Under the pieces are notes generated by a model that saw nothing but the letters and a program-made list of their open reading frames with translations, made no database searches and was not told where the DNA came from. Below are positions 2,378 to 57,046 of a DNA stretch of 64,000 nt, in pieces. A program made the translations under genes and the position numbers. The stretch's first letter is position 1. Every line of letters begins with the position of its first letter. The DNA is taken from assembly GCF_003253995.1 (NCBI RefSeq), contig NZ_QKZL01000015.1, forward strand, positions 3,915 through 67,914. The letters run 5' to 3'. This DNA is from Palleronia aestuarii (GTDB lineage Bacteria; Pseudomonadota; Alphaproteobacteria; Rhodobacterales; Rhodobacteraceae).

Positions 2378-3166
2378 TCAGTTCTTCTTGCCGTCGTTCC
2401 TCATGTGCCAGGCCATCGCCATTTCGAGGACGCGGGTGCCGAGGGTGCCGTGCGGGAGAAGACCCATCGGGTCGATCATTTCCCGAACATGGTCGACGAC
2501 ATCGAGAGGAACGTGCCGTGTGGCCTGTACCTTGTCCGGCATCGACGGGTAATCAGGTCGAAGGTTCTTCGTCGGTCCCTTCCCTGCCCGGACAGCCTCG
2601 ACGAACCCCTCGATGGCCTTATCCAGAAAATGCTTCGTAGCGAACTTGAGGCCATAGGCGTCGTGAATGGCGTCGAAGCTCGACGACACGCCAAGAGCAG
2701 GAAATGGCAGATAGCCTCTCAGCCTACTTTTTTCGGGCGATGGCGCGGGTGCGGATTTTGGCTTGCGTGAAGGCGGAGTTTCATCTGCGCGCTTCGGCAA
2801 CCCGGTTGGCGCCTGGTCCATCGGTCCTGCGACCAGATCGGAGGTTTCATCTGGTTTCGACCCCTCGGTTTGCGATCCCCTATCTGCATTGGGGACTTGC
2901 GGAGTTTTGTCGACCGCTACGGGTTTCCGGCCAAGATCGGTCTTGTCCGCCTCTACCGCCGACAATTCATCCGCACGATCCGGTTCGATCGCGTGCTGAT
3001 CCGAGCGAACGGCTTGCAGGGGAACAGGCTTGTTGTCCGGCGCTTCGGATCGCGGCGTGTCGTCCGATCGGGCCGCCTTGCTCGCTCCTTCGTCGTTCGC
3101 GTCGTTGAGCGAGAAGACTTCCTTGTAGCTAAGCCCATCTGGGCGTTTCCTGAGCTTACGTGTCAT
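2378..3166 (-). CDS. virC2: VirC2-like accessory transfer protein
   Basis: This 262-aa protein is encoded directly after the VirC1-type ATPase with a 4-base ATGA overlap, the order of virC1-virC2 in Agrobacterium. The N-terminal half is long, polar and low in complexity (rich in D, K, S and P), probably disordered. The C-terminal 80 residues (about 175-258) contain a basic beta strand followed by two helices (KVQATRHVPLDVVDHVREM, then LGTRVLEMAMAWHM), which fits a ribbon-helix-helix DNA-binding fold as in VirC2. Known VirC2 binds the overdrive sequence next to the T-DNA border and recruits the relaxosome. The assignment rests mainly on gene order and on the C-terminal pattern. A small inverted repeat at 2356-2370 just past the stop may be its terminator. 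Confidence 0.6.
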   Translation of the reverse strand: MTRKLRKRPDGLSYKEVFSLNDANDEGASKAARSDDTPRSEAPDNKPVPLQAVRSDQHAIEPDRADELSAVEADKTDLGRKPVAVDKTPQVPNADRGSQTEGSKPDETSDLVAGPMDQAPTGLPKRADETPPSRKPKSAPAPSPEKSRLRGYLPFPALGVSSSFDAIHDAYGLKFATKHFLDKAIEGFVEAVRAGKGPTKNLRPDYPSMPDKVQATRHVPLDVVDHVREMIDPMGLLPHGTLGTRVLEMAMAWHMRNDGKKN

Positions 3167-3948
3167 GCCTGCGCCTCCTTCGCCTCGGGTTCGAGCAGCG
3201 ACAGCACTTCGTCGGTCAGGGTATCGGCGTCTTTGATGGCCTTCCGGACCTCCGGAGCCATGACGCGCCTGTCGGGGTGTTTGCGGCAATACTCGAAATA
3301 CTTGTGCAGGATACCGCCTTGCGGAAGGTCCGAGAACACTTGGCGCCGCGGCAGGCGCGACGTCATGACCGGCATCTCGGCGTCGACCAGGGCCTTCAAT
3401 CCGACCTTGTTCGTCGCCGCCAGTGCGGAATCCCGGGTCGGTGTCCTGTTGAGGAGGATCTGAACGGACACCTCGTCCTCATACCCCTCGATGGCGTCGA
3501 CGAGGTAGTTGCACGTCCTGAAGAGGGCCTTCATCTCGTTGATGTCGAGAGCTGTCGGCACGATGACAAGCTGCGAGTTCAGGATGATCGTCTGGTTGAG
3601 GTCCGAGCCTCCCCCCTTCGTGTCGATGAAGACGAAATCGGCGCCGGCCTCGTCCGCCTTCCGGAGTGCGACACCAAGATCATCTGCATCCTCGATGGTG
3701 TAGATCAGGATTTCCTCGTCCCACGTCCCTTTCTCCAGCCCATCGGCTCTCCATGCGGTGATCGGCCTCATCTCGTCGGCTTCGAGAATGGCGACCTTCT
3801 TGCCTCGCGCCGACAGCGCCGACACGATCGTCATGAGACTGATCGTCTTCCCGGCCCCGCCCTTGCCGCTCATGAATGTCAGGATCGGAGCCCGCACTTC
3901 GTTGTCGGGGGCCGCCGCCGTTTCCATCACCTTCGCTGCTTCCGCCAT
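3163..3948 (-). CDS. virC1: VirC1-type ParA-family ATPase
   Basis: This is a 261-aa MinD/ParA-class ATPase. A deviant Walker A (SGKGGAGKT) lies near residue 28 and is followed by the ILEADEMRPITAW segment and GTWDEE. These match the LFDADENRPLTRW/TWD pattern I recall from Agrobacterium VirC1 better than typical plasmid ParA. A Walker A' (FVFIDTKGGG) follows. VirC1 binds overdrive DNA and helps load the relaxase-DNA intermediate on VirD4. I chose the ATG at 3948 because GGAG precedes it by about 7 bases; an in-frame start at 4074 would run through the repeat array. It is transcribed away from that array and overlaps virC2. A plain plasmid-partitioning ParA is the main alternative, but no ParB-like gene is adjacent. 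Confidence 0.8.
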   Translation of the reverse strand: MAEAAKVMETAAAPDNEVRAPILTFMSGKGGAGKTISLMTIVSALSARGKKVAILEADEMRPITAWRADGLEKGTWDEEILIYTIEDADDLGVALRKADEAGADFVFIDTKGGGSDLNQTIILNSQLVIVPTALDINEMKALFRTCNYLVDAIEGYEDEVSVQILLNRTPTRDSALAATNKVGLKALVDAEMPVMTSRLPRRQVFSDLPQGGILHKYFEYCRKHPDRRVMAPEVRKAIKDADTLTDEVLSLLEPEAKEAQA

Positions 3949-3982
3949 TCTGATTTCTCCCGGCTCTGCTGCCTGCATGTCC

Positions 3983-4307
3983 TCAAGTGCGACGGTTCCC
4001 AAGGCCCTACGGTCCTGCGGCCGCCAGTTCCCAAGTCCGTCGTTCCATAAGTACGACGGTGCCGAAGGTACCAAGTTCGTGCAATCCCAAGTGCGGATGC
4101 GCCCATGACCTTCTAATCATAGATACCTAGGCGCCACAGTCCGCAGGACCGCGGTTCCCCATGTGCCGATGATCCGATGGGCACAGTTCCCTATATACGA
4201 ATGATCATAAGGACACACATGCTTATCGGCACAAGTTCCCAAGTGTCTAAGTGCACAAGTGCGAATGGTCATATAGCTGCATGTGCCTAAGAACGAATGA
4301 TCCCAGA
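3983..4307. repeat. Array of degenerate ~32-bp direct repeats (overdrive- or centromere-like)
   Basis: An AT-richer non-coding stretch holds many related words. GTTCCC occurs at 3995, 4027, 4154, 4186 and 4235, and GGTGCCGAAGG at 4058 matches GGTTCCCAAGG at 3994. CGAATGATC-like words lie at 4167, 4199, 4262 and 4295. Most spacings are 32-33 or a multiple (3995 to 4027, 3994 to 4058, 4154 to 4186, 4167 to 4199, 4199 to 4262, 4262 to 4295), about three helical turns, so bound proteins would sit on one face. It lies between virC1 and the putative nick site, so a VirC1/VirC2 (overdrive) or ParA-type site is the natural reading. That role is inferred. Confidence 0.65.
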
Positions 4308-4522
4308 TACTCCCGATTTTGCGCTCAGAGGCCGCCAGACGGACACATCACCCTAGTTGGCACCACCCCCCCCTCAGGAGTTCGATTTGGCGCTCTGGCG
4401 GCCCTGCCAGGCTCTCCTCGGCGGCAATCAAGGTTTGGGGCACGACCCTCCGGAGATGCAATCCAGACCCTCAGAAGGCCTTGACCGATGAAGAAAGAAA
4501 ACGGAAGGTTCATTGTGGTGAA

Positions 4523-4555
4523 TGGCAGGATATATTCAAATGTATAACATTTGAA
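4523..4555. other. oriT: Putative oriT: T-DNA-border-like nick site plus inverted repeat
   Basis: TGGCAGGATATATTC at 4523-4537 matches the core of Agrobacterium T-DNA borders (TGGCAGGATATATTG) in 14 of 15 positions. Its complement contains ATCCTG/C, the MOB-P nick consensus. Directly adjoining is a perfect inverted repeat, TTCAAATGT (4535-4543) and ACATTTGAA (4547-4555), around ATA, the usual oriT layout of a hairpin next to nic. It lies 34 bases upstream of virD1 and virD2. The exact nick position is inferred from VirD2/TraI precedents. Confidence 0.8.
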
Positions 4556-4588
4556 ACTAGAAGAGCCAAGACCTCCGAAGTGGGACCG

Positions 4589-5065
4589 ATGACGACCGAC
4601 AACGACCAGACGCCAGGATGGAAGAACCGCCAGATGAAGGGTGGTGATTGGGTTGATCCCAATGCTTCGAAACCTGCCCAGCGGGCGGATCGCACCATCG
4701 CCGTGCGGGTGACGGAAGCCGAGCTGGCGGAGTTCGACACGCAGATCGCTCGGCTTGGGATCAAGCGGAACCGCGCGCTCCGGATCGCCATGCGGCGGAT
4801 TGGGGGGTTCGTGGAGGCCGATCCGATGCAGGTCGAAGCACTTCGCGACGTCGCGCGGCAGCTCGTCGGCGTGGCGCGGAACATCAACCAGATCGCAAAA
4901 TCCGCGAACCGGACCCGCGATCCGGACTACCGGGCCTTCATGGAAGAACGGGCGGCACTCGGAAAAGTCCTCGTTCAAGTGCAAGGGCAGACGCAGACGA
5001 TCCTCGACCTGGCTGCGCGACGCGAGGACGGGCTGGCGCGACTCGACCGTGAGGTCGACGAATGA
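4589..5065 (+). CDS. virD1: VirD1/MobC-like relaxosome accessory protein
   Basis: This 158-aa protein has a ribbon-helix-helix N-terminal part. After a polar leader, the strand RTIAVRVTEAELAEFD (about residues 34-50) precedes LGIKRNRALRIAMRRIGGF, very like the RNxALRxAxRRIxGFLE stretch of Agrobacterium VirD1. The C-terminal half is helical and resembles the MobC family (LRDVARQLVGVARNINQIA). VirD1 opens the oriT or border DNA so that VirD2 can nick it. I chose the ATG at 4589, giving a usual family length; longer in-frame reading would run into oriT. Its 3' end overlaps the relaxase start by 4 bases. Binding to the adjacent inverted repeat and self-repression are likely but not shown. Confidence 0.8.
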   Translation: MTTDNDQTPGWKNRQMKGGDWVDPNASKPAQRADRTIAVRVTEAELAEFDTQIARLGIKRNRALRIAMRRIGGFVEADPMQVEALRDVARQLVGVARNINQIAKSANRTRDPDYRAFMEERAALGKVLVQVQGQTQTILDLAARREDGLARLDREVDE

Positions 5066-6858
5066 GTTACGAGGTCGCCACGTTCCTGAAGCGAGGCAGG
5101 GCAGCCAAGTCCGGCGTCTCCGCACTCGATGCCGTCATGGGAGAAGACTGGGCGATCATCGAGCCGGGCCGGGCACGACGGGCGCGCGAGGCGCGACTTG
5201 GCCTGCAAATGGCTCATCGAGCGAATGTCGAACGGATGCGAGGCGGAGGAGGGGGCGGGGGCGTCAGCCTTCCGGGGCGCAAGCCGCAAGCCGTCATCAA
5301 GATGATCCGCAATGGAGGGGCGTCCGACCTGCGCGGTCTCCGAGCACAGATGACCTACCTGTCGCGAGAGGGCTCTCAGCCCTTACAGCGATCGGAGGCC
5401 ATGATGGGCCTTCCGGTCGATGCCGAGCAGGCGGATGCCATCGAGAAGGATTGGCGGATGCCGCCCGAGGGCTCCGGTCATGCTGACCGGACGTCGCATT
5501 TCATCGCCAGCTTTCCGGAGAACACCGATCCCCAGGCCGCCGAACGGGCAGGGCGGGCCTGGGCGGAGGAGATGTTCGGGTCGGGACAGTACGGCGGGGA
5601 CAGCTACGACTACTACACCGCGTTCCACACCGACCGGGCACATCCACACATGCATGTCGTCGTCTACCGCCGGGGGCTGGAGAACGGCGAATGGCTCAAG
5701 GTCTCGCAGCGCGGCGACATGAACTACGATCGGATGCGCGAGGTCCTGGTGAACGTCGCCGGCCGCGAGGGAATCGAGTTGGAAGCGACACCGCGCCTGG
5801 CGCGAGGACTTCACGACCGACCGGTGCCGGACGCGGAATACCGTAGGGCGGGCGAAGAAGGCCGTGAACCGATTCCGCCTTCGCATACACGGACGACTGC
5901 CATTCTCGCGGCGGCGGCGCTCCTGCATCAATCCCGCCGCTTCGCGACCGAGGCGCAACTGGTCGAAGGCAAGTCGCCCGAGACCGCACGGATTCTCTAT
6001 GCGGCCTCCGCAGCCGCATCCGAGGGGAAGGCTCTTGCGGAGATCACAGCGACTATCAGCAATCGGCAGGAGGCCGACATGAGCGAACGTGTCAATGCGG
6101 TGAAAACCGAGATCCGGGACAGCATCGACAAGATGGACCGGGGCGTGGAGAAAGTTGGCGACAATGCCACCCGAATGAGGCTGGCCCGCGAGATCGCCAG
6201 TCTGAAAGCGGAGACGGCTCCGCTTCTCGCCAATCCGCGCGACCTGGCCCCCTTCACGCAACCGGGCGAAAGTGGGCGTTACCGGGGTCTCGAGCAGAAC
6301 AATCCCAGCGAGCTCGCAGCGAAGAGCGTCGTGGAAGAGCGCGTAAAAGCCGTGGCAACCCGGTACGGCGTCGATCCCGAGGCGACGGTAGAGCGGTATT
6401 CCGGCTCGACGCCATCCAAAGGTCTTGAACGCCAATTCCAAAGCGCCGAGGTCGAAGAGCGCGGCAGGACACGGGTTGCGCGCGGCGAAGGTCCGGAGGA
6501 CGTGCAGGCGCGTGACGTCGCATTGTCTAGGATGCATCAGGAGATCGGATTGATCTACGATGCCGCCCGCGAGCGCAGTCGCGATGCCCGACCGGCGGCG
6601 ATGCCTCGCGGCCTGGGAGGCGACGAGGGCAGGACTGATGCTGCCACACCCGATGCACGCCGTCAGGACCAAGCTCATCAAGCACAAACGGAAGCACAGC
6701 AACGCGACCGGGCCATCGACCCGATCGCACAGCGCATCGTCGACGAGCAGGCGGCGGAAAAGCGCGCCGCTGCGGCTCGCGAGGCGGCTCGGGAGCAGCG
6801 CGACCGGGAACTCGACGAGCGCGCCAAGCGCGATCGCGACAACGGCCGCGGCCTCTGA
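5062..6858 (+). CDS. virD2: VirD2-like MOB-P relaxase
   Basis: This 598-aa relaxase nicks oriT and stays bound to the 5' end of the transferred strand. Motif I with the likely catalytic tyrosine is YLSREGS (Y99). A conserved MFGSGQYGGDSYDYYTAFHTD segment leads into the three-histidine motif (HTDRAHPHMHVVV, H189-H198). All three match VirD2 (YLSRKGK, EMFGSGAGGGRYNYLTAFH, DRDHPHLHVVV). The family is usually about 420-450 residues; here there is a 70-residue basic, glycine-rich N-terminal extension and a long helical, charged C-terminal tail (about 270-598), which would carry the secretion signal. It overlaps virD1 and is followed 17 bases later by virD4. Confidence 0.92.
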   Translation: MSYEVATFLKRGRAAKSGVSALDAVMGEDWAIIEPGRARRAREARLGLQMAHRANVERMRGGGGGGGVSLPGRKPQAVIKMIRNGGASDLRGLRAQMTYLSREGSQPLQRSEAMMGLPVDAEQADAIEKDWRMPPEGSGHADRTSHFIASFPENTDPQAAERAGRAWAEEMFGSGQYGGDSYDYYTAFHTDRAHPHMHVVVYRRGLENGEWLKVSQRGDMNYDRMREVLVNVAGREGIELEATPRLARGLHDRPVPDAEYRRAGEEGREPIPPSHTRTTAILAAAALLHQSRRFATEAQLVEGKSPETARILYAASAAASEGKALAEITATISNRQEADMSERVNAVKTEIRDSIDKMDRGVEKVGDNATRMRLAREIASLKAETAPLLANPRDLAPFTQPGESGRYRGLEQNNPSELAAKSVVEERVKAVATRYGVDPEATVERYSGSTPSKGLERQFQSAEVEERGRTRVARGEGPEDVQARDVALSRMHQEIGLIYDAARERSRDARPAAMPRGLGGDEGRTDAATPDARRQDQAHQAQTEAQQRDRAIDPIAQRIVDEQAAEKRAAAAREAAREQRDRELDERAKRDRDNGRGL

Positions 6859-6875: not shown

Positions 6876-9110
6876 ATGTCCCCTTCGAAATCCATCCTGC
6901 CGCTCGCACTCGGCGGCCTTCTGATTGGGCTCCTGCTCGGCTCGATCGTCGCCGGCGCCTATGCCTCGTGGGTCGTCGGTCGCGATCCCACGAATGTCGG
7001 CTTCACAACAATCTTCGACTTCATGCCCCTGTCGCTACAGGACATCCCGAAGCTGGAACCGATCCGTACGGCCTTGATGATCTGGGCGGCAATCGCGGTT
7101 GTCGCCGCGATCGCGATCCCGGCTATCGGTCGCCCGCGCCAGCTCACCAGCCACGGTTCGGCTCGCTGGGCCACCCAACAGGAATTGAAGAAAGCTGGCC
7201 TGTCGACGCAAATCAGGACCCTGAACGGACCCATCTATGCCAAGTTCGGCCCGCCGAACTCGAATGCGGATTTTTTTTCCTCGCGGGAAATCCCGCATTG
7301 CATGGCGATCGCCCCGACCGGATCGGGCAAGACGCGCGGCATCACGATCCCGACGGTGCTGACCTATCCCGGTTCGATCTTTGCCCTCGATATGAAGGGT
7401 GAGCTGTTCGCGAAGACAAGCCGGCGACGGATGACTTTCGGCGACAAGGTGTTCAAGTTCGCACCTCTCGACGACAACGATCGGACGCATCGCTACAATC
7501 CGCTTCAGGTCGTGCTGGACGCACATCCTCGGCGGCAGTTCACGGAGGCCAAGCGTGTCGCGTCCTCCTTCATTATCGCGCATGGGAACGGGCAAGGTTT
7601 CCTAGAAGGCGCCCGTGAGATTTTCACGGCCGCTGCCATCCACGTCATCGAGAAGGGCACACCGACGATCGGTGCGATCCTCGACGCGCTTTCCCAGCCC
7701 GGTGAAAGCTCGAAACTGATGTGGAACCTCGGCGACGAGACGAAATCCGAGGACGCCAGGAAGATCTTCTACAAGATGTCGGGCATGGAATCCCGCATCC
7801 TCAGCTCGTACCTGTCGGTTCTCGGAGACGGTGGTTTGAGCCTATGGAACAACCCCGCAATCCGTGCGGCCACCTCGAAATCCGATTTCACCTTTGCCAA
7901 CCTGCGGTCCGAACCTGCCACGATCTACTTCGTCGTCTCGGACAACGATCTGAGCGATCTGGCGCCGCTCGTTCGACTGATGTTCCAGCAGGCCATCAAG
8001 ATTCTGAAAAGGGCCGAGCCGGACCCCGAGAAGGGCGAGAAATACACTGTCCTCTTCTGTCTCGACGAGTTCGCGTCCCTTGGAAGAATGGACGCTTTGA
8101 TGGATGGGATTGCCACGCTCCGCAGCTTCGGCGGCCGAGTGATGATCATCCTCCAGACGCTTGGCCAGTTGCGGAAGCATTACGACAAGGATGGCGAAAC
8201 CATCTTCCTGTCGAACTGCCGCATACAGCTCTTCATGTCCGCAGCGGACGAGGAGACTCCCCGCTACGTCAGCGAGGCGGTCGGCGACTTCACCCGCAAG
8301 TCGCGGTCGAAATCTTGGAAGGGCGGTCAACTGACGACCTCTTATCAGGAGCGCGAAGATGGCGCCCGGCTGATCCGGCCCGAGCAGGTGCGAATGCTTG
8401 GCAAGAACACGATCCTCGCGCTGGTCGAGGACTCCTACCCGGTCATCGCCAGCAAGGTAATCTACTACGAGGACAAGATCCTCAAACCAATCTTCGACGA
8501 CCAGACTGGTCCTCTACCGGAGCCTCCGGTGCTGCCGGACGATCCGATCAGTGAGACAGCCCAGCCCTTGGCACCTGCACAATCGAGCAATGGGAGCAAT
8601 GGCGCGGATAATCCGCTTGCTGCGCTACGGCCTGCCACGGTCTCGTCGACTCCCGCGGTCGATCCGGATCGAGCCAAGGATGGTGCAGCGTCAGAGGCCC
8701 CTGTTCCAGACAAGGCTGCCGTAAGCGAACCGACTGTCGCCGGTCCGAACGCGACCGATGTCGGGGATGCAGAACCCGACGATTCCCAGGAAGCAGCGGA
8801 GCTGGCCGCGCTCTATCCCGTAAGAGACAAATGCCGGCGACTGGATGCCGCTCTGACCCTCGCGCAAGAAATGTATGCGGTAGGGATGCGATCCGAGGAA
8901 AAGAATGATGCGGCCCCGGCGCAATCTGCGCCCGAGGACGTCACCAACGAAGGCGATGAAGCAAGTAAGGTCGGCAATGTTGACGAAACGTCTTCGCAGC
9001 GCCCGAAAGGCTTGCGAAGGGCGAACCTGTCGCAAGCGCAAGCAAACATATTCCCCAATAAGGACGAAACAGGTCAGGATCGGCCCGAACCAGATCAGCC
9101 TGGCGCCTGA
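6876..9110 (+). CDS. virD4: VirD4/TraG-type coupling ATPase
   Basis: This 744-aa inner-membrane ATPase connects the relaxosome to the VirB channel. Two N-terminal membrane segments (about 8-33 and 66-86) are followed by the conserved GSARWAT motif. Walker A IAPTGSGKT lies at 145-153 with FALDMKGELF just after, and a Walker B-type LFCLDEFASLGRM lies near residue 395. Residues about 545-744 form an acidic, Pro/Ala/Asp-rich, probably disordered extension not needed in the core family. It is the last gene of the virD1-D2-D4 operon. Its 3' end overlaps the 3' end of the convergent virB11 by 16 bases, so the two transfer operons meet tail to tail. Confidence 0.93.
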   Translation: MSPSKSILPLALGGLLIGLLLGSIVAGAYASWVVGRDPTNVGFTTIFDFMPLSLQDIPKLEPIRTALMIWAAIAVVAAIAIPAIGRPRQLTSHGSARWATQQELKKAGLSTQIRTLNGPIYAKFGPPNSNADFFSSREIPHCMAIAPTGSGKTRGITIPTVLTYPGSIFALDMKGELFAKTSRRRMTFGDKVFKFAPLDDNDRTHRYNPLQVVLDAHPRRQFTEAKRVASSFIIAHGNGQGFLEGAREIFTAAAIHVIEKGTPTIGAILDALSQPGESSKLMWNLGDETKSEDARKIFYKMSGMESRILSSYLSVLGDGGLSLWNNPAIRAATSKSDFTFANLRSEPATIYFVVSDNDLSDLAPLVRLMFQQAIKILKRAEPDPEKGEKYTVLFCLDEFASLGRMDALMDGIATLRSFGGRVMIILQTLGQLRKHYDKDGETIFLSNCRIQLFMSAADEETPRYVSEAVGDFTRKSRSKSWKGGQLTTSYQEREDGARLIRPEQVRMLGKNTILALVEDSYPVIASKVIYYEDKILKPIFDDQTGPLPEPPVLPDDPISETAQPLAPAQSSNGSNGADNPLAALRPATVSSTPAVDPDRAKDGAASEAPVPDKAAVSEPTVAGPNATDVGDAEPDDSQEAAELAALYPVRDKCRRLDAALTLAQEMYAVGMRSEEKNDAAPAQSAPEDVTNEGDEASKVGNVDETSSQRPKGLRRANLSQAQANIFPNKDETGQDRPEPDQPGA

Positions 9111-10120
9111 TCCTCCAACGCCGGCATGAACACCTGCAGGACGCCACGACGCCCCTCGTGGCGTCCTGTCTGTATCACGAGGTCGATGGTGGCGCGGGCG
9201 TAGTCGAGGATGTCGCCCCGGCCGAGGTCGAGGCCTGCGCGCAGCACCATCATCGCCATGCGTTCGAGCGCGAGCTGCGGGCTGTCGGCATGGATGGTGC
9301 TGATCGAGCCGGGGTGCCCGGTGTTGATCGCCTCGAGGAAGTTGAACGCCTCCGCGCCACGGATTTCGCCCAGGATCAGCCGGTCGGGCCGCATCCGGAG
9401 CGCGCTCTCCAGAAGGCGGGCAGGGGAGCGTTCCGAGTCCGTCCGCCGGTCGGCGACGAGCGCCACATTGTTCGGATGCGGCAGGTGCAGCTCGGGCGCG
9501 TCCTCGATCGTCACCATGCGCTCGCCCCGGTCGGCCATCGACATGATCGCGCGGGCGAGGGTGGTCTTGCCCGAGGAGGTACCGCCGGAGACGAGGATGT
9601 TCAGCTTCTCGGTGACGGCCCGGTGCATGAGATTGGCGAGATCGCCGGCCTCGGCCAACGCGCGCAGCTCCTCCAGCCGGTCGAGACGCTGCCGCTCGAC
9701 ATCGACCTCGGCCCCCATGAGGAATCCCACCTCGTGCAGCTCCAGGATGCGCGAGACGTACTTGCGGATCGACACCGACACGCCGGCCTCGATCGCGGGC
9801 GGCACGATGACCTGCACGCGCATCGACTGGCCGAAGACATGGACGCGGCCCGAGACGATGGGGTGGTGGCGGCCGAGCTGCGTCCTGGCCTCGCCGGCGA
9901 GATGCGCGCCGAGCGCGTTCAGGCGTTCGGGCGGGATCGCGCCCTCCCACCGCTCCATGTGGCCGCGCTGCGCGTACTCGACCCAGACGCTGCGGTCGGG
10001 GTTGATGACCACCTCGTTGACGCCTTCGTCGATGAGAAGGTCGCGCAGCGGCAATAGCCCTTGCTCAGCATAGCTGGCAGGGCTGGCGGTCGAGCCAACT
10101 ATGCTATCAACCCGTTGCAC
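9095..10120 (-). CDS. virB11: VirB11 traffic ATPase
   Basis: This 341-aa hexameric secretion ATPase works at the base of the type IV system. The C-terminal domain shows Walker A (SGGTSSGKTTL, about 177-187), an Asp box (VTIEDAPEL), Walker B (RPDRLILGEIRG) and a His box (NTGHPGSISTIHAD). Length is typical of the family. The start is a GTG whose first base is the last base of the virB10 TAG, so it depends on coupled translation. It is the last gene of the virB operon and overlaps the end of virD4. Confidence 0.95.
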   Translation of the reverse strand: MQRVDSIVGSTASPASYAEQGLLPLRDLLIDEGVNEVVINPDRSVWVEYAQRGHMERWEGAIPPERLNALGAHLAGEARTQLGRHHPIVSGRVHVFGQSMRVQVIVPPAIEAGVSVSIRKYVSRILELHEVGFLMGAEVDVERQRLDRLEELRALAEAGDLANLMHRAVTEKLNILVSGGTSSGKTTLARAIMSMADRGERMVTIEDAPELHLPHPNNVALVADRRTDSERSPARLLESALRMRPDRLILGEIRGAEAFNFLEAINTGHPGSISTIHADSPQLALERMAMMVLRAGLDLGRGDILDYARATIDLVIQTGRHEGRRGVLQVFMPALEDQAPG

Positions 10121-11424
10121 TAGAACACTAAATCCCTGTTGACGAACACGGTCATGTAGACGCCCTGGTCGATGTAGATGACCGGGCCGGCGTTCAGGTA
10201 ATCCGCCATTACGCCCTGCGTGGCCGTGGCCATGTCGTCGCCCACGTCCTGCATCGCGTCTGCCGCATCGCCCCTTGTATCGTCCTTGATGACCACATCC
10301 GGACCGGCGCCGATGAGCGAGATCAGCGCGGCCGAGCCGAACCGCTGGCGGAACCGGGTATCCACCTGTCCCGCCTGTCCCGACATCCCGAGCGCGTCGG
10401 CGCCGTAGCCGCCCAGCTCGACGCTGACGCCCTCGGGCGTCACCGCCCGGTTCCAGGCGATCTGCACGCGGTCCTGAATGACCGAGACGTCCGAGTTGTA
10501 CGACCCGATCAGACGCGAGCCGCGCGGGATCAGGACGTTCATGCCATCGTAGCTCATCACGTCGTCGGTCACGACGGCGCGGATCGCGCCGGGCAACTCG
10601 GTCGAGATCGCGGTCTCCAGCACGGCGTTGAGCGTCGTGCCCTGCACGATGGTCCGGCTCGGATTGGCGATCCGGGTGGCGCGCACGGTGTCGTAACTTT
10701 GCGTGCTGGCGTCCTGGATGAACTGCTCGTTCGAGGTCAGGGTGCGCCCCGAGGCATCGCCCGCGCCGGACGCGCCCCCCTGGCTGCCGCCGGTCTTGGC
10801 GCCGGCCGCGTCGAGGACGATGCCGTTCGACATGATCTGCGCCTCGGCGATCGCCGCCCGGCGCTGGCGCTCCTCTTCGAGACGCCGACGCGCCTCGCGT
10901 TCGTCCTCGCTCATGCCGGTATCGCCGCCCCCGGCGTTCTGGGCCATCTGCGCGAGGAGCGCCTGGTAGCGCGCATCCGCGTCTTCCCGTTCCCGTTCGA
11001 GCTTCGTCTGCATGTCGTCGAGGGCCGCTTGCAGGGCCTCGTCGCCGCCCTGCGACTGGCGCAGGGATTCGAGCTGCGCTTCGAGATCGGCGATGCGCTT
11101 GCGGTCCTCCTCACGGCCATCGTCGACTGGCGGCGGTGTCATCGGCGTCATCACGGCGGGGATGGGCGTCGTGTCGGGCTGATCCACGGGTTGACCGGCC
11201 GGCATTCCGGTATCCACCCCCGGCGCCGTTTCTTCTCTCTGCATCTCCTGGGTCTGCGACGTGTCGGGACCGCTTGTATCCACGGCCTCCGGACTCAAAA
11301 TGAAGTAGGCGACGACACCCACGGCCCCGAGGAAAGCAACAGCAGCGATTGTTCGACCGCGGCCGGACCCTTCCGAGCCACCCTCGATCATCTGGTCGCG
11401 CGTGTTCGTACCCTGATCGCTCAT
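10120..11424 (-). CDS. virB10: VirB10 inner-to-outer-membrane scaffold protein
   Basis: This 434-aa protein spans the envelope and forms the core complex with VirB9 and VirB7. A cytoplasmic N-terminus and one membrane helix (about 26-46) are followed by a proline- and glutamine-rich periplasmic linker, then a coiled-coil stretch (about 105-195, heptad-like and rich in E, R, Q and A). The conserved TrbI/VirB10 beta-barrel fills residues 230-430, with IPRGSRLIGSYNS and the terminal IDQGVYMTVFVNRDLVF. The start overlaps the virB9 stop. The coiled coil is longer than in Agrobacterium VirB10 but such variation is common. Confidence 0.95.
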   Translation of the reverse strand: MSDQGTNTRDQMIEGGSEGSGRGRTIAAVAFLGAVGVVAYFILSPEAVDTSGPDTSQTQEMQREETAPGVDTGMPAGQPVDQPDTTPIPAVMTPMTPPPVDDGREEDRKRIADLEAQLESLRQSQGGDEALQAALDDMQTKLEREREDADARYQALLAQMAQNAGGGDTGMSEDEREARRRLEEERQRRAAIAEAQIMSNGIVLDAAGAKTGGSQGGASGAGDASGRTLTSNEQFIQDASTQSYDTVRATRIANPSRTIVQGTTLNAVLETAISTELPGAIRAVVTDDVMSYDGMNVLIPRGSRLIGSYNSDVSVIQDRVQIAWNRAVTPEGVSVELGGYGADALGMSGQAGQVDTRFRQRFGSAALISLIGAGPDVVIKDDTRGDAADAMQDVGDDMATATQGVMADYLNAGPVIYIDQGVYMTVFVNRDLVF

Positions 11425-12218
11425 TTTATTACCACGCTGCCCCGAATTTCGGGATCATAGACGGCGTAACCCTGGCCGAGCTGCGGCGCGCGCCGCCCGC
11501 CCGGCACCGAGCGGATCACGTCGCCATGCGCCACGCAGATCTCCTCGTCGCCGATGCGGATGGTCCAGCGGTCCGACACGCGATCGACGATGCTGGCGTT
11601 CTCGGCATGACGGACATTGACGATGCTCTCGCGCCCGTCCGGCCCGACGAGGAAGATACCCGGCCGCCGGGCGTTCTCGGGAAAGACGAAGATGGTGCGC
11701 TTGCCGTCGTCGTAGACCTGAAGCGGCTTGATCGAGGTCGCATCGCCGGCGGCGTAGTAGTCGAAGTCCTTCGGCCGTTCGGCCCGCTCGATCGCCGCGC
11801 TGCGGGCCTGCGCCTCGACGCCGGGATAGCGGAAGCTGACGCGGTAGTTCAGGTTGGGCGCTCCGACCTGGCCCGCCCGCGCCCGCAGTTCGAACGTGTA
11901 GGGGCGCTGGTTCGTGTAGACCGTCATGTTGGTGTAGGCGCCCTCGATCAGCGGCTTCACCGACAGCACGTCACCGCGGTCGAGACGGACGATCTGCCAG
12001 CTTTCGCTGTCGCCCACCTGAACGGACTCGATGTTCTCGCCCGGCTCGAACTCGATCGAGGTGATGAAGCGCATATAGGTGTCGAGCCGGTAGACCTCGT
12101 GCTCGTCGTAGGTGAACGACCGGATGCGGCTGTCCTGCGGGAAGGGCCGCGGCGTCGTCTCGGCCGTGGCAAGGCCGGTCATGGCAAGGAGCGCGATGAG
12201 GGGGAGAGCGTGCTTCAT
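11421..12218 (-). CDS. virB9: VirB9 outer-membrane core protein
   Basis: This 265-aa secreted protein begins with a signal peptide (MKHALPLIALLAMTGLATA). The N-terminal beta domain contains IRSFTYDEHEVYRLDTYM and the FEPGENI motif. The C-terminal domain, where VirB7 docks, carries PKDFDYYAAGD, a DDGKRTIFVFPE strand and the VNVRHAENASIVDRVSDRWTIRIGDEE segment usual for VirB9/TrbG/CagX. It overlaps virB10 by 4 bases and starts 3 bases after the virB8 stop. The product should form the periplasmic and outer-membrane ring with VirB10 and the small lipoprotein at 15256-15384. Confidence 0.94.
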   Translation of the reverse strand: MKHALPLIALLAMTGLATAETTPRPFPQDSRIRSFTYDEHEVYRLDTYMRFITSIEFEPGENIESVQVGDSESWQIVRLDRGDVLSVKPLIEGAYTNMTVYTNQRPYTFELRARAGQVGAPNLNYRVSFRYPGVEAQARSAAIERAERPKDFDYYAAGDATSIKPLQVYDDGKRTIFVFPENARRPGIFLVGPDGRESIVNVRHAENASIVDRVSDRWTIRIGDEEICVAHGDVIRSVPGGRRAPQLGQGYAVYDPEIRGSVVIK

Positions 12219-12221
12219 GGG

Positions 12222-12896
12222 TCAGCCTCTCGGATCGAGGGTTTCCGCGTCGATGCGGTAGCCGGTGACGGTGAAGCCGAGCGGATTGCGCCAGACCTGA
12301 TCCAGTGTGCGTTCGGTGCGGGGCTCGAAGGCGTAGCCGACCACGGCCACGAAGTCGCGCTCGACGGCGGTTTGGCCCTCCTTCTCCATGCGGCGCACGA
12401 AGCGGACCTGCGCGGTGTCGTCGTCGAGGATCGAGACCGAGCGGACGCGCGTGGTGATGACGGTATCGCCGCCATAGAGCGTCGGTGGATACTGTTCGGA
12501 GCTGCTGTTCCAGATCGCGCGGAGCGACGACTGCGCCTGTCCCTGAGACATGCCGTCGACGAGCGGGATGCGCTGCGGATTGTCGTTCGGATCGTAGGTC
12601 TCGCGGTTGGTGACGTAGCGGACCAACTCGGCCTCGAGGACCGCGCGCTGGTCGTCGAGCGAGGTCGGACGGACCGAGACCACCTGCTCGGACTCGCCCG
12701 TGGCACGGTCCACCATGACGACGTAGGGCCGTGTCTCCTTGAGCGGCACCGTCAGCGCGAGCGTCACCACCGAGGCCAGCCCGATCCCCATGCCAAGGGC
12801 ACCCACGACCCAGCCGATGTTGCGTTGCCGGCGCAGCGAGAAGAACACCTCGTTCTCGAAGGCTTCGGCGGTCTCATCTGGGGTTTTCTTCGCCAT
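12222..12896 (-). CDS. virB8: VirB8 inner-membrane assembly protein
   Basis: This 224-aa bitopic protein has a short cytoplasmic part, one membrane helix (about 29-50, GWVVGALGMGIGLASVVTLALTV) and a periplasmic NTF2-like domain containing RETYDPNDNPQRIPLVDGMS and the conserved VTGYRID end. VirB8 is a nucleation factor binding VirB9 and VirB10. It is separated by 75 bases from virB6 upstream, one of the few gaps in this operon, and runs straight into virB9. Confidence 0.93.
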   Translation of the reverse strand: MAKKTPDETAEAFENEVFFSLRRQRNIGWVVGALGMGIGLASVVTLALTVPLKETRPYVVMVDRATGESEQVVSVRPTSLDDQRAVLEAELVRYVTNRETYDPNDNPQRIPLVDGMSQGQAQSSLRAIWNSSSEQYPPTLYGGDTVITTRVRSVSILDDDTAQVRFVRRMEKEGQTAVERDFVAVVGYAFEPRTERTLDQVWRNPLGFTVTGYRIDAETLDPRG

Positions 12897-12971: not shown

Positions 12972-14129
12972 TCAGTCTTCCTTGGTCTCGTCGGTGCGTC
13001 TGTTTCTGCGGCTTCGCCGGTTCTCGTACCGCTGTCCCGCATTGGCCGCGCGGTAGCGGTCGACGCTGCTCGCTTGGCCTCCGCGCATGGCGGCGTGCGA
13101 CGCATTGAGGTCGGCGTACTTGTTGCGGATTTCCTTCTGCCGCGCGAACTCGATCTGCTTGCCTTCCCAGTAGTTGCTGCCGGATTTCTCGGCGGCGACC
13201 CCGGCCCGGTGTCCCTCGATTTGAGCGCCGCCGATGCGTGCGATCTCTCGGCCACCGGCTGTCGCAATCTTGCCGGCGACCGCCGAGGCGCCGACCGCAG
13301 CGGTCGCGCCGCCGATCGCCATCGCCACGCCGTTGGCGGTCGCGGTGATCGTGCCAGACAGGCCGTTGACCAGCGTGGGCACCATCGCAGTCATGAAGAT
13401 CGCGCCGACACCGACGATGATGAAGCCGCCGGCATCTTCGAGTGTGATTGCCGCATCCGCTTCAGCAATAAGACTCTGACCAATCCCGACGATCGCTCCG
13501 ACGACGCCGGCCATGACTAGCGGGATCAGTGCGAAGCCGAGGGTGAACCGCACCCAGCTTTCGAACAGGTTCGAGGTCGCTTTGAACATCAGCGCCGGAA
13601 TGAAGATCGGCGCGAGCGCGATGGCCATTCCGAGCCCGATCTTGCCCAGCGAGATGACGATGATTGCGGCTGCCGCCATGAGCGAACCAATGATCCAGAC
13701 GACGATCGCCGCAAAGCTGATGCCGAAAGGAAGGCTCGCGTTCTCCGACAGCGTATCGGAGAAATTGAACATCGTTGAGATAATCTCGTCGAACGCGGTG
13801 TTCAGGTTAGGCGCATCGACAATGCCCATCAGCTTGGCGCCAAGCTCCTGAGGTGTGTTGGTGACGATGTCGTAGATCGGCTCGAACTGCGCCCAGGTCG
13901 TCGCGACGGCGGTGATGATGATGTAGCGGACGCCCCACTTGAAGTATTCGCTCGTGCGGATCGGCACCCATTGCGTCAGCGCATTAAGCGCGATGAAGGC
14001 CAGACCGACGAGACCCATCGCCTGGCATATGGTTGCGATCGGTCCAGCGAACGCGGTGAAGCTGCTCTCAGCGTAGTTGCCGATCGCGTTGTCCACTTGG
14101 TTCAAGGTATTCTCAACGTAGCTCGCCAT
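12972..14129 (-). CDS. virB6: VirB6 polytopic channel protein
   Basis: This 385-aa TrbL/VirB6-family inner-membrane protein lines the DNA path. At least five hydrophobic segments can be seen: about 25-50, 65-82, 150-175, 185-210 and 215-260. A glycine/alanine-rich stretch (VAMAIGGATAAVGASAVAG) follows, then a charged cytoplasmic C-terminal tail of about 90 residues. The tail ends in an unusual Arg/Asn-rich run followed by acidic residues. It follows the small secreted protein at 14145 by 15 bases. Confidence 0.9.
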   Translation of the reverse strand: MASYVENTLNQVDNAIGNYAESSFTAFAGPIATICQAMGLVGLAFIALNALTQWVPIRTSEYFKWGVRYIIITAVATTWAQFEPIYDIVTNTPQELGAKLMGIVDAPNLNTAFDEIISTMFNFSDTLSENASLPFGISFAAIVVWIIGSLMAAAAIIVISLGKIGLGMAIALAPIFIPALMFKATSNLFESWVRFTLGFALIPLVMAGVVGAIVGIGQSLIAEADAAITLEDAGGFIIVGVGAIFMTAMVPTLVNGLSGTITATANGVAMAIGGATAAVGASAVAGKIATAGGREIARIGGAQIEGHRAGVAAEKSGSNYWEGKQIEFARQKEIRNKYADLNASHAAMRGGQASSVDRYRAANAGQRYENRRSRRNRRTDETKED

Positions 14130-14144
14130 CGGTCCGGTCTTCCG

Positions 14145-14561
14145 TTACTCGATCGCGCCGACGTCGCGGCAATAGCTTATCATTGCGAGGTTTTGTTCGC
14201 GATTGCTCTCCATCGCACGGGAATGTGGGTGCAAGGCATCGTTCGACATACCGAAGTATTCCTCGGGCACCATCGCCTTGATCGCGTCCCAGTCACGCCG
14301 GTCGTTCAGGCAGGAAATGTCGTAGGGTCGTCCTTCTGCGTATGCTTCACATTGCGCCATACGATAGGCGGTGTCCCAGCGTTCGCGGTATTTCATCAAT
14401 ATATTGTAGAGGGCATTGTTCGAGCCCGAGATCGCACGGGCCTCATCGCTATCCATGTCCATCTGGTTCTCACAAATCCACGAGCCGCCGGTGGCGTGCG
14501 CCATCGGCGTCGCGAGGATCAGGGCAGCGGCCGCAGCCGCCAGGGTCGAGTTCAGCGTCAT
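14145..14561 (-). CDS. Small secreted protein between virB5 and virB6
   Basis: Family not recognised. The 138-residue product has a signal peptide (MTLNSTLAAAAAALILATPMAHA), then a helical mature part with four cysteines (WICENQ, QCEAY, ISCLN, SYCRD), suggesting two periplasmic disulfides. Its position between virB5 and virB6, with a 4-base overlap of virB5 upstream, shows it belongs to the conjugation operon. An entry-exclusion or pilus-assembly helper is plausible because such proteins are often encoded here, but nothing in the sequence proves it. Confidence 0.75.
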   Translation of the reverse strand: MTLNSTLAAAAAALILATPMAHATGGSWICENQMDMDSDEARAISGSNNALYNILMKYRERWDTAYRMAQCEAYAEGRPYDISCLNDRRDWDAIKAMVPEEYFGMSNDALHPHSRAMESNREQNLAMISYCRDVGAIE

Positions 14562-15259
14562 CCGTCATCTCCCACGCGCATGAAGGTCCGGGACGCCGCC
14601 TGTTCACGCGCTGCCAGAAGGGCGTCCGTGCCGGTGGCGTTGGCCTGCGCCGCCTGGAGCCGCAAGCTCTCGTTCAGAAGCACCGCGATCTCGCCCAGCA
14701 TCCGGGTGTTGTAATCCACCGACGCCTTGAGATCGGCGTTGCCGTCGATCTGCCCGATGAGCTGGTTCACCCGGCCCATTGACGTATTGGCCCGCGCGTA
14801 GGTGTCCTCGGCCGTCGCCACCGCCGCGAGGCCCGCGCCCGCCTGCGTGGCGAGCGCCCGGTCCTGCGGCGTGTCCGATGTCAGGAACCCGTTGAGATCG
14901 GGCAACGCGAACGTGGTCTTCAGTTCGTTCATCCGCGCGGTCAGCGCCGAGGCGTTGCCGGGGATCGCCGCGCCCGTCATCCCGCCCGACATGATCGCGG
15001 ACAGGCTGCCGGCCGATTCCCGCGCCGCGATCTCGGGCGCGGAGTTCAGGATGCCGGCGATCGCCTTGTCGCCGGTCATGCTCTGAAGCTGCTGGAGCTG
15101 GTTGGCGTAGTCCTGCCGCATCTGTTCGAGCTGTGCGATGGCCTGCGCCACCGAGGCCGCGTCGAAGGTCGGCACGCCCTGGGCGTGCGCCGGGGCCGAC
15201 GCAAGTGCGCCGGCGGTGATCGCCGCCAGTGCGGCCGCGTTGCGAAGTCTCCGGATCAT
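14558..15259 (-). CDS. virB5: VirB5-type minor pilin
   Basis: This 233-aa secreted protein has a signal peptide (about residues 1-26, ending in SAPAHA). The mature protein is almost entirely helical (QAIAQLEQMRQDYANQLQQL and later helices), as in VirB5/TraC pilus-tip adhesins. I chose the ATG at 15259 because it overlaps the stop of the 42-aa lipoprotein gene (ATGA) and is followed at once by the signal peptide; a longer open frame reaches 15550 but overlaps virB4. Agrobacterium VirB5 is about 220 residues. Confidence 0.88.
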   Translation of the reverse strand: MIRRLRNAAALAAITAGALASAPAHAQGVPTFDAASVAQAIAQLEQMRQDYANQLQQLQSMTGDKAIAGILNSAPEIAARESAGSLSAIMSGGMTGAAIPGNASALTARMNELKTTFALPDLNGFLTSDTPQDRALATQAGAGLAAVATAEDTYARANTSMGRVNQLIGQIDGNADLKASVDYNTRMLGEIAVLLNESLRLQAAQANATGTDALLAAREQAASRTFMRVGDDG

Positions 15260-15384
15260 ACCGTGGCCTCTCCCGTGGTGTTGATGGATTCCCAGTTGCA
15301 GACGCAGGGCGACGTCTTCTCGGTGTAGGTCACGCAGCCCCCCAGCAGGGCGGCGAGCGCGAGCGCGGCGATGATGCGGACCAT
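15256..15384 (-). CDS. virB7: 42-aa VirB7-like lipoprotein
   Basis: This small gene is easily missed. The start ATG overlaps the virB4 stop (ATGA) and its own stop overlaps the virB5 start (ATGA), so it is locked between two certain genes. The product begins MVRIIAALALAALLGGC, a signal peptide with a perfect lipobox (LGGC, Cys17), followed by 25 residues with two more cysteines (SPCVCNWES). Size, lipobox and extra cysteines fit VirB7, which anchors VirB9 in the outer membrane. The position after virB4 is displaced from the Agrobacterium order. An entry-exclusion lipoprotein of the TrbK/Eex type is the alternative. Confidence 0.8.
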   Translation of the reverse strand: MVRIIAALALAALLGGCVTYTEKTSPCVCNWESINTTGEATV

Positions 15385-48805: not shown

Positions 48806-48874
48806 AGTCCGCTCTGAATGTCGTCTGCGATTCTTCGAGCTGCCTTATAAGGGTTTGACTGCATCGATAGCGGA

Positions 48875-50647: not shown

Positions 50648-50739
50648 GCAACCCTCCCCCGCCGGTTGCACAGATCATCACAGTTGCGCTCAAAATAATC
50701 CACCCATTTTCCGCTTTTTCGCGTTAGCACGTGCCACTA

Positions 50740-56512: not shown

Positions 56513-56826
56513 GCTGAGACCCGCGTCGATGCCGAGGCCGCCATGACGACCTTTGCTACGACGTACGGCGCCAAGTACGCCCACGCCGTCACCTGCCTGA
56601 CGAAGGACCGGGAGGCGCTGCTCGCCTTCTTCGACTTCCCCGCCCAGCATTGGGACCATCTCCGCACCGCCAACCCGATCGAGAGCGTGTTCGCCACCGT
56701 CCGGCATCGGACCGTGCGCACGAAGGGCGCGCTGTCGCAGGGTTGAGGAGACCGTGGCCGCAGTCCGGCCGCGCAAGCCCCGAAACGGCGAAGCTCATGG
56801 TCTTCACCCTGATCCGTGCCGCCTAG
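56513..56826 (+). pseudogene. IS256-family transposase 3' fragment
   Basis: The plus strand reads AETRVDAEAAMTTFATTYGA, TCLTKDREALLAFFDFPAQH, HLRTANPIESVFATVRHRT and then stops. A second frame (56785-56826) ends TAKLMVFTLIRAA. This is the C-terminal third of an IS256/Mutator transposase, broken by a frameshift. Confidence 0.8.
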
Positions 56827-57046
56827 AAGTCTTGGCGCCGTCTGTCGGGCGCAAATCAGTTGCCTCCGGTCGGATCCGATCGATCCCGGCAAACGCTCTC
56901 AAGATGTCCGGGCGACAAGCGGCGGACACATGCATTCCAATTGTTGTTGCCTCCCTTGGCGCAACGTCGCAATCTTGAATTGTAGGCAAAGGGGACGCGC
57001 ATTTGGCGTGATACAGCCGCGTTCCGTCAGCGCGGGGGGCTCGATC

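What the first reader, a model, noticed from the sequence alone, without database searches (positions are those of the whole stretch)
4523..4555. T-DNA-border-like oriT in a bacterial conjugative plasmid
The 15 bases TGGCAGGATATATTC differ from the classical Ti/Ri border core only at the last base. They abut a perfect 9-bp inverted repeat and lie just upstream of VirD1- and VirD2-type genes. TTGTGGTG, which follows the core in one T-DNA border, occurs just before it here. It suggests that border-type nick sites are ordinary oriT sites outside Agrobacterium.
Basis: partly seen in the sequence, partly recalled or inferred. Interest (0 to 1): 0.85.

Follow-up and report, generated by a model that had tools for sequence, protein, structure and literature searches.

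The report
Bacterial plasmid oriT resembling T-DNA border
A bacterial plasmid appears to start its cell-to-cell transfer at a DNA site that shares its core with the borders Agrobacterium uses to send DNA into plants, plus a matching half that borders lack, suggesting that plant-directed DNA transfer grew out of ordinary plasmid conjugation.

Summary
TGGCAGGATATATT (4523-4536) is unique in the 4.54-Mb genome, abuts a perfect 9-bp dyad and lies 66 bp before virD1-virD2-virD4. Of 38 loci examined, 32 have GGCAGGATATAT (at most one mismatch) upstream of the relaxase gene; 31 of these 32 keep a dyad of five or more pairs at one geometry, with arms that change together. It is very probably the oriT nick region of a MOBP (VirD2-type) conjugation system. 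The shared nick octamer of MOBP oriTs and T-DNA borders is already published, so the principle is old. Not found in my searches: (i) 24 of 24 exact rhizobial border copies keep GT at 20-21, as do 32 of 32 oriTs, but only 1 of 24 keeps the partner AC at 25-26 (oriTs 32 of 32), so borders look like oriTs without the distal dyad arm; (ii) the virC1-oriT gap holds an 8- or 9-bp-phased array (17 in one) in 33 of 33 window-group loci measured, not detected in nine rhizobial-type loci; (iii) virC2, virC1, array, oriT, virD1, virD2, virD4 and six virB genes stand together. Nicking and protein binding are untested; the direction of evolution is favoured, not proven. The TTGTGGTG detail is not conserved.

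The parts
4523..4535 (+). border-type nick region TGGCAGGATATAT; predicted nick on the - strand between 4526 and 4525 (5'-ATATATCCTG^CCA-3')
   Evidence: nick position by analogy with the published MOBP nick octamer YATCCTGY (PMC3772185, passages), not measured
4535..4555 (.). 9-bp dyad TTCAAATGT-ATA-ACATTTGAA, putative VirD1 binding site / relaxase recognition arm
   Evidence: same geometry in relatives, arms covary, GT at 20-21 and AC at 25-26 in 32 of 32
3973..4305 (.). degenerate 8-bp-phased direct-repeat (iteron-like) array between virC1 and oriT
   Evidence: window z 24.1, 0 of 300 shuffles
2378..3166 (-). virC2 homologue (262 aa)
   Evidence: profile of 20 homologues hits PDB 2rh3 (Protein virC2) at 7e-20; phmmer to an annotated VirC2 at 1.7e-7 (L040); no Pfam hit for the window's own sequence
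3163..3948 (-). virC1 homologue (ParA-like ATPase); start ATG at 3948 inferred
   Evidence: (PF07015 4.8e-49)
4589..5065 (+). virD1 homologue (relaxosome accessory protein)
   Evidence: PF07328 9.4e-15; NF010432 4.2e-35, below its cut-off
5062..6858 (+). virD2-type MOBP relaxase
   Evidence: PF03432 3.2e-13; NF010437 VirD2 2.5e-45, below its cut-off
6876..9110 (+). virD4 coupling protein
   Evidence: NF010424 3.4e-200, 666.6 bits against a cut-off of 681
9095..12896 (-). virB11, virB10, virB9, virB8 homologues of the mating channel
12972..17744 (-). stretch with virB6 (12972-14129) and virB4 (15384-17744) homologues; the genes between were not assigned

Best explanation
The site is the origin of transfer of a VirC/VirD/VirB-type conjugation module on a presumed plasmid of a Rhodobacterales bacterium. 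VirD1 would bind the dyad at 4535-4555 and open the neighbouring strand. VirD2 would then cut the - strand at ATATATCCTG^CCA (between 4526 and 4525) and stay on the new 5' end. The strand would leave towards lower coordinates, so the array and virC genes enter the recipient first and virD/virB last. VirC1 (ParA-like) and VirC2 (homologue of a solved VirC2) would bind the 8-bp-phased array next to oriT and bring the relaxosome to the channel, as VirC1 with overdrive does for T-DNA. Shown: gene identities, conserved core, conserved covarying dyad, conserved array. Inferred: the nick, strand, direction, and which protein binds which element.
For: GGCAGGATATAT (at most 1 mismatch) upstream of the relaxase gene in 32 of 38 loci examined. 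Dyad arms pair in 178 of 208 cells against a permutation mean of 139 and a maximum of 164 in 20,000; a run of at least 5 pairs at the fixed geometry in 31 of 32. Divergent virC2-virC1 / virD1-virD2-virD4 order. Motif-only search of 385 class genomes found 2 matches, both directly upstream of virD1; one is the window, the other is the locus already held as L025. Search of 390 order genomes with a stricter pattern found only the window. Phased array in 33 of 33 window-group loci measured. A T-DNA right border is described as acting as an origin of transfer into E. coli (PMC5985610, passages).
Against: No experiment on this element. Positions 3-13 were found by a search that allowed one mismatch, so their invariance is partly by construction. 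The window's VirC1, VirD1, VirD2 and VirD4 all score below NCBI's equivalog cut-offs. Loci are not independent (26 distinct 35-mers of 32; some loci are near-identical). L027 has only 3 dyad pairs, L034 has no site. The array is weak in L021 (score 0.029 against 0.020 in its control stretch). No replication gene was identified in the ORFs scanned, so the plasmid nature of the 90-kb contig is presumed. The dyad could also be a virD1 operator.
Confidence: 0.9

Rival explanations
1. The conserved block is only an operator or promoter element of virD1-virD2-virD4: the dyad is an autoregulation site and the core is its flank.
For: It lies 66 bp before virD1 and the dyad suits a dimeric repressor; oriT-binding accessory proteins often autoregulate (recalled).
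Against: The 12-base core equals that of published T-DNA border strings and contains the MOBP nick octamer; an operator would not need it. No sigma-70-type promoter match in 4300-4650, although that scan does not cover other promoter types. Dual use is possible.
Confidence: 0.06
2. It is a T-DNA border or remnant, part of a system that sends DNA into eukaryotic cells.
For: Core identical to borders, with VirC, VirD and VirB homologues.
Against: One copy only in the genome, directly beside virD1, with a dyad partner that borders mostly lack (AC at 25-26 in 1 of 24 exact rhizobial border copies). Six rhizobial plasmids carry 2-8 copies away from virD1. Plast or opine genes were not sought systematically in the window.
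Confidence: 0.03
3. Chance resemblance in an AT-rich spot of a GC-rich window.
For: Single copy; the octamer alone is short.
Against: Same site at the same place in 32 of 38 loci with a covarying dyad; reversed-pattern controls 0.
Confidence: 0.01

Closest known systems
T-DNA borders of Ti/Ri plasmids (VirD1/VirD2 substrate) and overdrive (VirC1 site)
   Same: Core GGCAGGATATAT and GT at 20-21; homologous VirC1, VirC2, VirD1, VirD2, VirD4. The window matches three published 25-mers at 19, 21 and 17 of 25; relative L010 matches one at 22.
   Different: Single copy beside virD1 with a complete dyad; border copies in six rhizobial plasmids come in groups elsewhere and mostly lack the distal arm. 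Overdrive lies beside the right border (PMC4285021, passages); here a long phased array sits between virC1 and oriT.
H. pylori tfs4 VirD2 oriT and RP4-type MOBP oriT (PMC3772185)
   Same: YATCCTGY nick octamer with an inverted repeat immediately 5' of the nick region, upstream of virD2; in tfs4 the arms are 9-10 bp in a 25-bp repeat, close to the 9-bp arms here, and tfs4 also has a VirC1 homologue (passages).
   Different: RP4's repeat is 16 bp. In tfs4 virC1 is convergent with virD2, here divergent. No VirC2 of tfs4, no phased array and no 12-base border core is mentioned in the passages seen.
R388 stbABC / stbDR module (PMC3098194)
   Same: ParA-like gene in an operon divergent from the mobility genes, with a direct-repeat array beside oriT; those genes enter the recipient first (passages).
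   Different: R388: two sets of five 9-bp repeats with 2-bp spacers, bound by StbA. Here 8- or 9-bp phasing without spacers over about 330 bp in the window, and the candidate partner protein is VirC2-like.

Membership tests
MOBP oriT (VirD2/RP4 type) | YATCCTGY nick octamer | tested here: met
   TATCCTGC on the - strand over 4525-4532
MOBP oriT (VirD2/RP4 type) | inverted repeat on the 5' side of the nick on the cut strand | tested here: met
MOBP oriT (VirD2/RP4 type) | cognate MOBP relaxase and accessory protein encoded next to it | tested here: met
MOBP oriT (VirD2/RP4 type) | strand-specific nick and relaxase on the 5' end | not testable with these tools
   needs biochemistry
T-DNA border | core GGCAGGATATAT and GT at 20-21 | tested here: met
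T-DNA border | two or more same-strand copies bounding a segment | tested here: not met
   one copy in the genome
T-DNA border | no dyad partner AC at 25-26 | tested here: not met
   AC present here and in 32 of 32 oriTs, in 1 of 24 exact rhizobial border copies; one of the other copies (pAt1D132b) has a 6-pair dyad at another spacing
VirC1/VirC2 transfer-enhancer system | VirC1 and VirC2 homologues | tested here: met
   (2rh3 at 7e-20)
VirC1/VirC2 transfer-enhancer system | VirC proteins bind the cis site (overdrive or, here, the array) | not testable with these tools
   binding not measured; array found next to oriT
R388 stbDR-type array | 9-bp repeats with 2-bp spacers | tested here: not met
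   window period is 8; periods 8, 9 or 17 in relatives
R388 stbDR-type array | StbA homologue that binds the repeats | not tested
   no StbA search was made; works-like claim only

The most novel reading that the evidence does not exclude
T-DNA borders are half-oriTs. The T-DNA system arose from a VirC/VirD conjugation module like this one: the oriT nick half (core plus proximal dyad arm) was copied and dispersed, the distal dyad arm was lost, and the VirC-bound array beside oriT was reduced to overdrive-type sites beside right borders. Plasmids such as the window's keep the undivided form: virC2-virC1, phased array, full oriT, virD1-virD2.
Probability: 0.45. Interest if true: 0.8.

Novelty: new variant of a known kind. 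Interest (0 to 1): 0.6.

Why it matters
Borders and MOBP oriTs are known to share a short nick motif, but which came from which, and what was gained or lost, needs intermediates. This module has VirC1, VirC2, VirD1, VirD2 and the border core arranged as one conjugation origin, with two extra conserved cis elements, the distal dyad arm and the phased array. That makes the origin of T-DNA transfer testable by simple dissection in non-pathogenic bacteria, and gives a practical oriT signature for a group of Rhodobacterales and Hyphomicrobiales plasmids, three of which (L036, L037, L039) MOB-suite typing lists as non-mobilizable.

Tried and rejected
Chance: rejected by conservation. TTGTGGTG before the core as a signal: rejected, 1 of 32. 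A larger outer inverted repeat around core and dyad: 11 of 29 distinct loci are reached by 5 or fewer of 500 shuffles, but the window is not among them (492 of 500), so it is not claimed for the window. Right-half similarity of the three published border 25-mers to oriTs beyond the core: weak for two (159 and 237 of 2000 shuffles reach it), better for the third (4 of 2000); the firm shared part is GT at 20-21. Loss of the dyad in borders is not total: one p42a copy keeps 5 pairs at the oriT geometry and one pAt1D132b copy has 6 pairs with a 2-nt spacer. Rooting the relaxase tree: three trees. In one search the rhizobial VirD2s and the distant roseobacter VirD2s each form a clade at an unresolved base; one row (L025) was badly cut there and distorted the midpoint root. 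In one search the rhizobial clade branches among window-group rows with the PromA outgroup beside it (89/89, open), and the distant roseobacter clade branches next to L027/L038/L039; the rhizobial clade is next to the window/L010/L011 clade (83/77, not starred) and the roseobacter clade lies outside (96/100). Long branches are in play, and holding the 22 window-group rows together is not rejected (p-AU 0.215), so ancestry is not settled. Rows dropped: duplicates L017 and L028 and short L032-L034, L025 left out; one search used 31 chosen rows with 4 rhizobial ones (L041, L043, L044, L045). Distant roseobacter plasmids: 3 of 7 have a GCAGGAT- or ACAGGAT-type site 47-51 bp before virD1 (L046, L049, L052), 2 have GGCAGGAAA at -27 (L051, L053), 2 have nothing within one mismatch (L047, L050). 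Structure prediction of the VirC2-like protein did not run and became unnecessary. A motif hit first taken as a new genome (L085; so called in my note) proved identical to L025.

Full report
What is there. TGGCAGGATATATTC stands at 4523-4537, with a perfect 9-bp dyad at 4535-4543 / 4547-4555. TGGCAGGATATATT is unique in the 4.54-Mb genome. Downstream, on +, are virD1 (4589-5065), virD2 (5062-6858) and virD4 (6876-9110); upstream, on -, are virC1 (3163-3948) and virC2 (2378-3166); homologues of virB11, 10, 9, 8, 6 and 4 follow on -. Other virB genes were not assigned. The VirC2 assignment rests on a profile of 20 homologues that finds the solved VirC2 (2rh3) at 7e-20; the window's sequence alone has no Pfam hit. 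The window lies in a contig of 89,965 bases; no replication gene turned up in the ORFs scanned, so 'plasmid' is presumed from the transfer genes.

Conservation. The search for related loci gave 33 relatives of the relaxase in genome contigs. With the window and four plasmid records (L036-L039) that makes 38 loci, here called the window group apart from L030 and L031. Within 700 nt upstream of the relaxase, 32 of 38 have GGCAGGATATAT with at most one mismatch. The six misses: L026 and L032 hold about 40 nt upstream; L030 and L031 are rhizobial-type; L024 has the site with two mismatches and the same GT...AC geometry; L034 has none. The 32 give 26 distinct 35-mers. Positions 3-13 never vary (partly by construction); positions 20-21 are always GT and 25-26 always AC. 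The arms of the dyad change together: 178 of 208 pair cells, against a mean of 139 and a maximum of 164 in 20,000 permutations; of the geometries tried the best is the 3-nt spacer. A run of at least five pairs is present in 31 of 32; L027 has three. Going from motif to gene, 385 class genomes gave two exact matches to GGCAGGATATATN6GTN3AC, both immediately upstream of virD1; one is the window and the other is L025 again. In 390 order genomes a stricter pattern matched only the window; that pattern excludes known variants such as L009, so it shows rarity of the exact form, not of the family.

The array. Between virC1 and the core lies a degenerate tandem array. In the window the repeats are phased at 8 bp over about 3973-4305; the period score is 0.114, z 24.1, and none of 300 shuffles reaches it; a control stretch of equal length starting at 4302 scores 0.013. 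All 28 window-group loci (window and L024 included) and all five (L033, L036-L039) show it, 33 of 33 measured, none reached by a shuffle (300 or 200 each); L026, L032 and L034 were not measured, and L016/L017, L018/L028 and L015/L020 are near-identical pairs. Best periods are 8 bp in 24, 9 bp in 8 (L005, L006, L007, L009, L010, L011, L016, L017) and 17 bp in one (L037). In the seven loci whose units I printed, the unit sequence differs. The weakest are L021 (z 5.0; 0.029 against 0.020 in its control) and L022 (z 6.1). No such signal in nine rhizobial-type loci (L030, L031; L040-L045, L048; L041 and L044 come nearest, reached by 20 and 19 of 200 shuffles; for L045 and L048 no virC1 adjoins and I took the stretch before virD1). 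Of seven distant roseobacter plasmids, the four without signal (L046, L049, L051, L053) gave no VirC1 match; L047 (period 8) and L052 (period 15) have a VirC1 match and a signal; L050 (period 12) has a signal without a VirC1 match. The simplest reading is a binding array for VirC2 and/or VirC1; that is inference. The closest described arrangement is R388 stbDR with the ParA-like StbB (PMC3098194, passages).

Relation to borders. Rhizobial plasmids with virD1 and virD2 homologues have no core just before virD1 (L041-L045, L048) but carry exact GGCAGGATATAT elsewhere, on one strand per plasmid: pRL7 5, pRRI128_4 8, a Bradyrhizobium plasmid 3, a Mesorhizobium plasmid 3, p42a 3, pAt1D132b 2. The A. 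vitis F2/5 plasmid (L040), whose relaxase gave no match to the window's, has none. In all, 9 of 19 records searched match; the reversed-pattern control is 0 throughout. L038 and L039 do not match that pattern because their second base is A. p42a borders were already reported (five sequences within one mismatch; PMC8554961, passages), against an earlier report that none were detected (PMC4958254, passages). In the 24 exact copies, GT at 20-21 is present in 24 and AC at 25-26 in 1; in the 32 oriTs, both in 32. A dyad run of at least five pairs at the oriT geometry is seen in 1 of 26 border rows (24 exact, 2 with one mismatch), and one more row has six pairs with a 2-nt spacer. Many of these copies are variants of two border types, so they are not 24 independent cases. 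The three published border 25-mers also have GT at 20-21 (strings, by eye; their left/right and opine labels are recalled, except that PMC5985610 uses TGACAGG... in a right-border primer). So a border looks like the core and proximal arm of this oriT without the distal arm.

Direction. An oriT beside the relaxase operon with an adjacent inverted repeat is also the form in H. pylori tfs4 (PMC3772185). The PromA-type plasmid L087 has a YATCCTGY site about 78 nt before mobC, with a repeat beside it that I read by eye (the name PromA is recalled). That favours oriT as the older state. The relaxase trees do not settle it (p-AU 0.215).

What is known. That VirD2 and RP4 TraI share the nick consensus YATCCTGY is established (PMC3772185, passages, citing Waters 1991, seen only in its reference list). 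tfs4 has 9-10-bp arms and a VirC1 homologue, so the plan 'VirC1 + inverted repeat + nick + VirD2' is itself not new. A T-DNA right border serves as an origin of transfer into E. coli (PMC5985610, passages). VirC1 binds overdrive (PMC4285021, passages). Conjugation of a Dinoroseobacter T4SS plasmid is reported, but the terms oriT and origin of transfer do not occur in that text (PMC4886583). My topic searches listed no paper whose title or abstract start describes an oriT of this family or the array (one search listed 20 of 27); the library holds open-licence papers only.

Verdict. New variant of a known kind: a VirD2-type MOBP oriT with a border core, a full dyad and a virC-linked phased array.

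Noticed in passing
L082, L083, L079 (NC_008382.1 44.8-54.6 kb, NZ_CP088117.1 23.5-62.3 kb, NZ_CP088152.1 16.9-20.6 kb): Plasmids of symbiotic rhizobia (R. johnstonii pRL7, S. meliloti pRRI128_4, M. mediterraneum R31) carry same-strand groups of border-type sites, mostly of two kinds (right halves like CCTGATGTAAAT, and like CTTTGTAGCC followed by an overdrive-like TTTCTTTGTTTGTGC; overdrive likeness recalled). In each a RolB-family gene lies between a first-kind and a second-kind copy (in pRL7 the second-kind copy has one core mismatch). They look like small T-DNAs.
   Followed up: partly
L080 / NC_007762.1 (R. etli p42a) 82785, 85355, 94408: Three exact border cores on one strand; the one at 94408 still has a 5-bp dyad, GATGTAAAACATC. 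Borders in p42a are already published (PMC8554961, passages).
   Followed up: partly
window 3973-4305 and the virC1-oriT gap of relatives: Array period switches between 8 and 9 bp (17 in L037) among relatives while its position is kept; how every unit gains or loses a base is unexplained.
   Followed up: partly
L010, L012, L015, L016, L018, L019, L021, L022, L025, L037, L039 around the core: A larger, often G-rich outer inverted repeat flanks core and dyad in 11 of 29 distinct loci (5 or fewer of 500 shuffles); absent from the window.
   Followed up: partly
window 46490-50671: Defence-type genes: an nSTAND/Mrr-like protein (PADLOC PDC-S73, 9.8e-129) next to an OLD-family nuclease (4.8e-222).
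   Followed up: no
window 56816-62893: A 2025-aa ORF without any Pfam or PADLOC match at E 0.001.
   Followed up: no
L072 / G390:C1:2572924: The Jiella pelagia genome has a second exact GGCAGGATATAT on contig 1, apart from the copy at its oriT on contig 3; context not examined.
   Followed up: no
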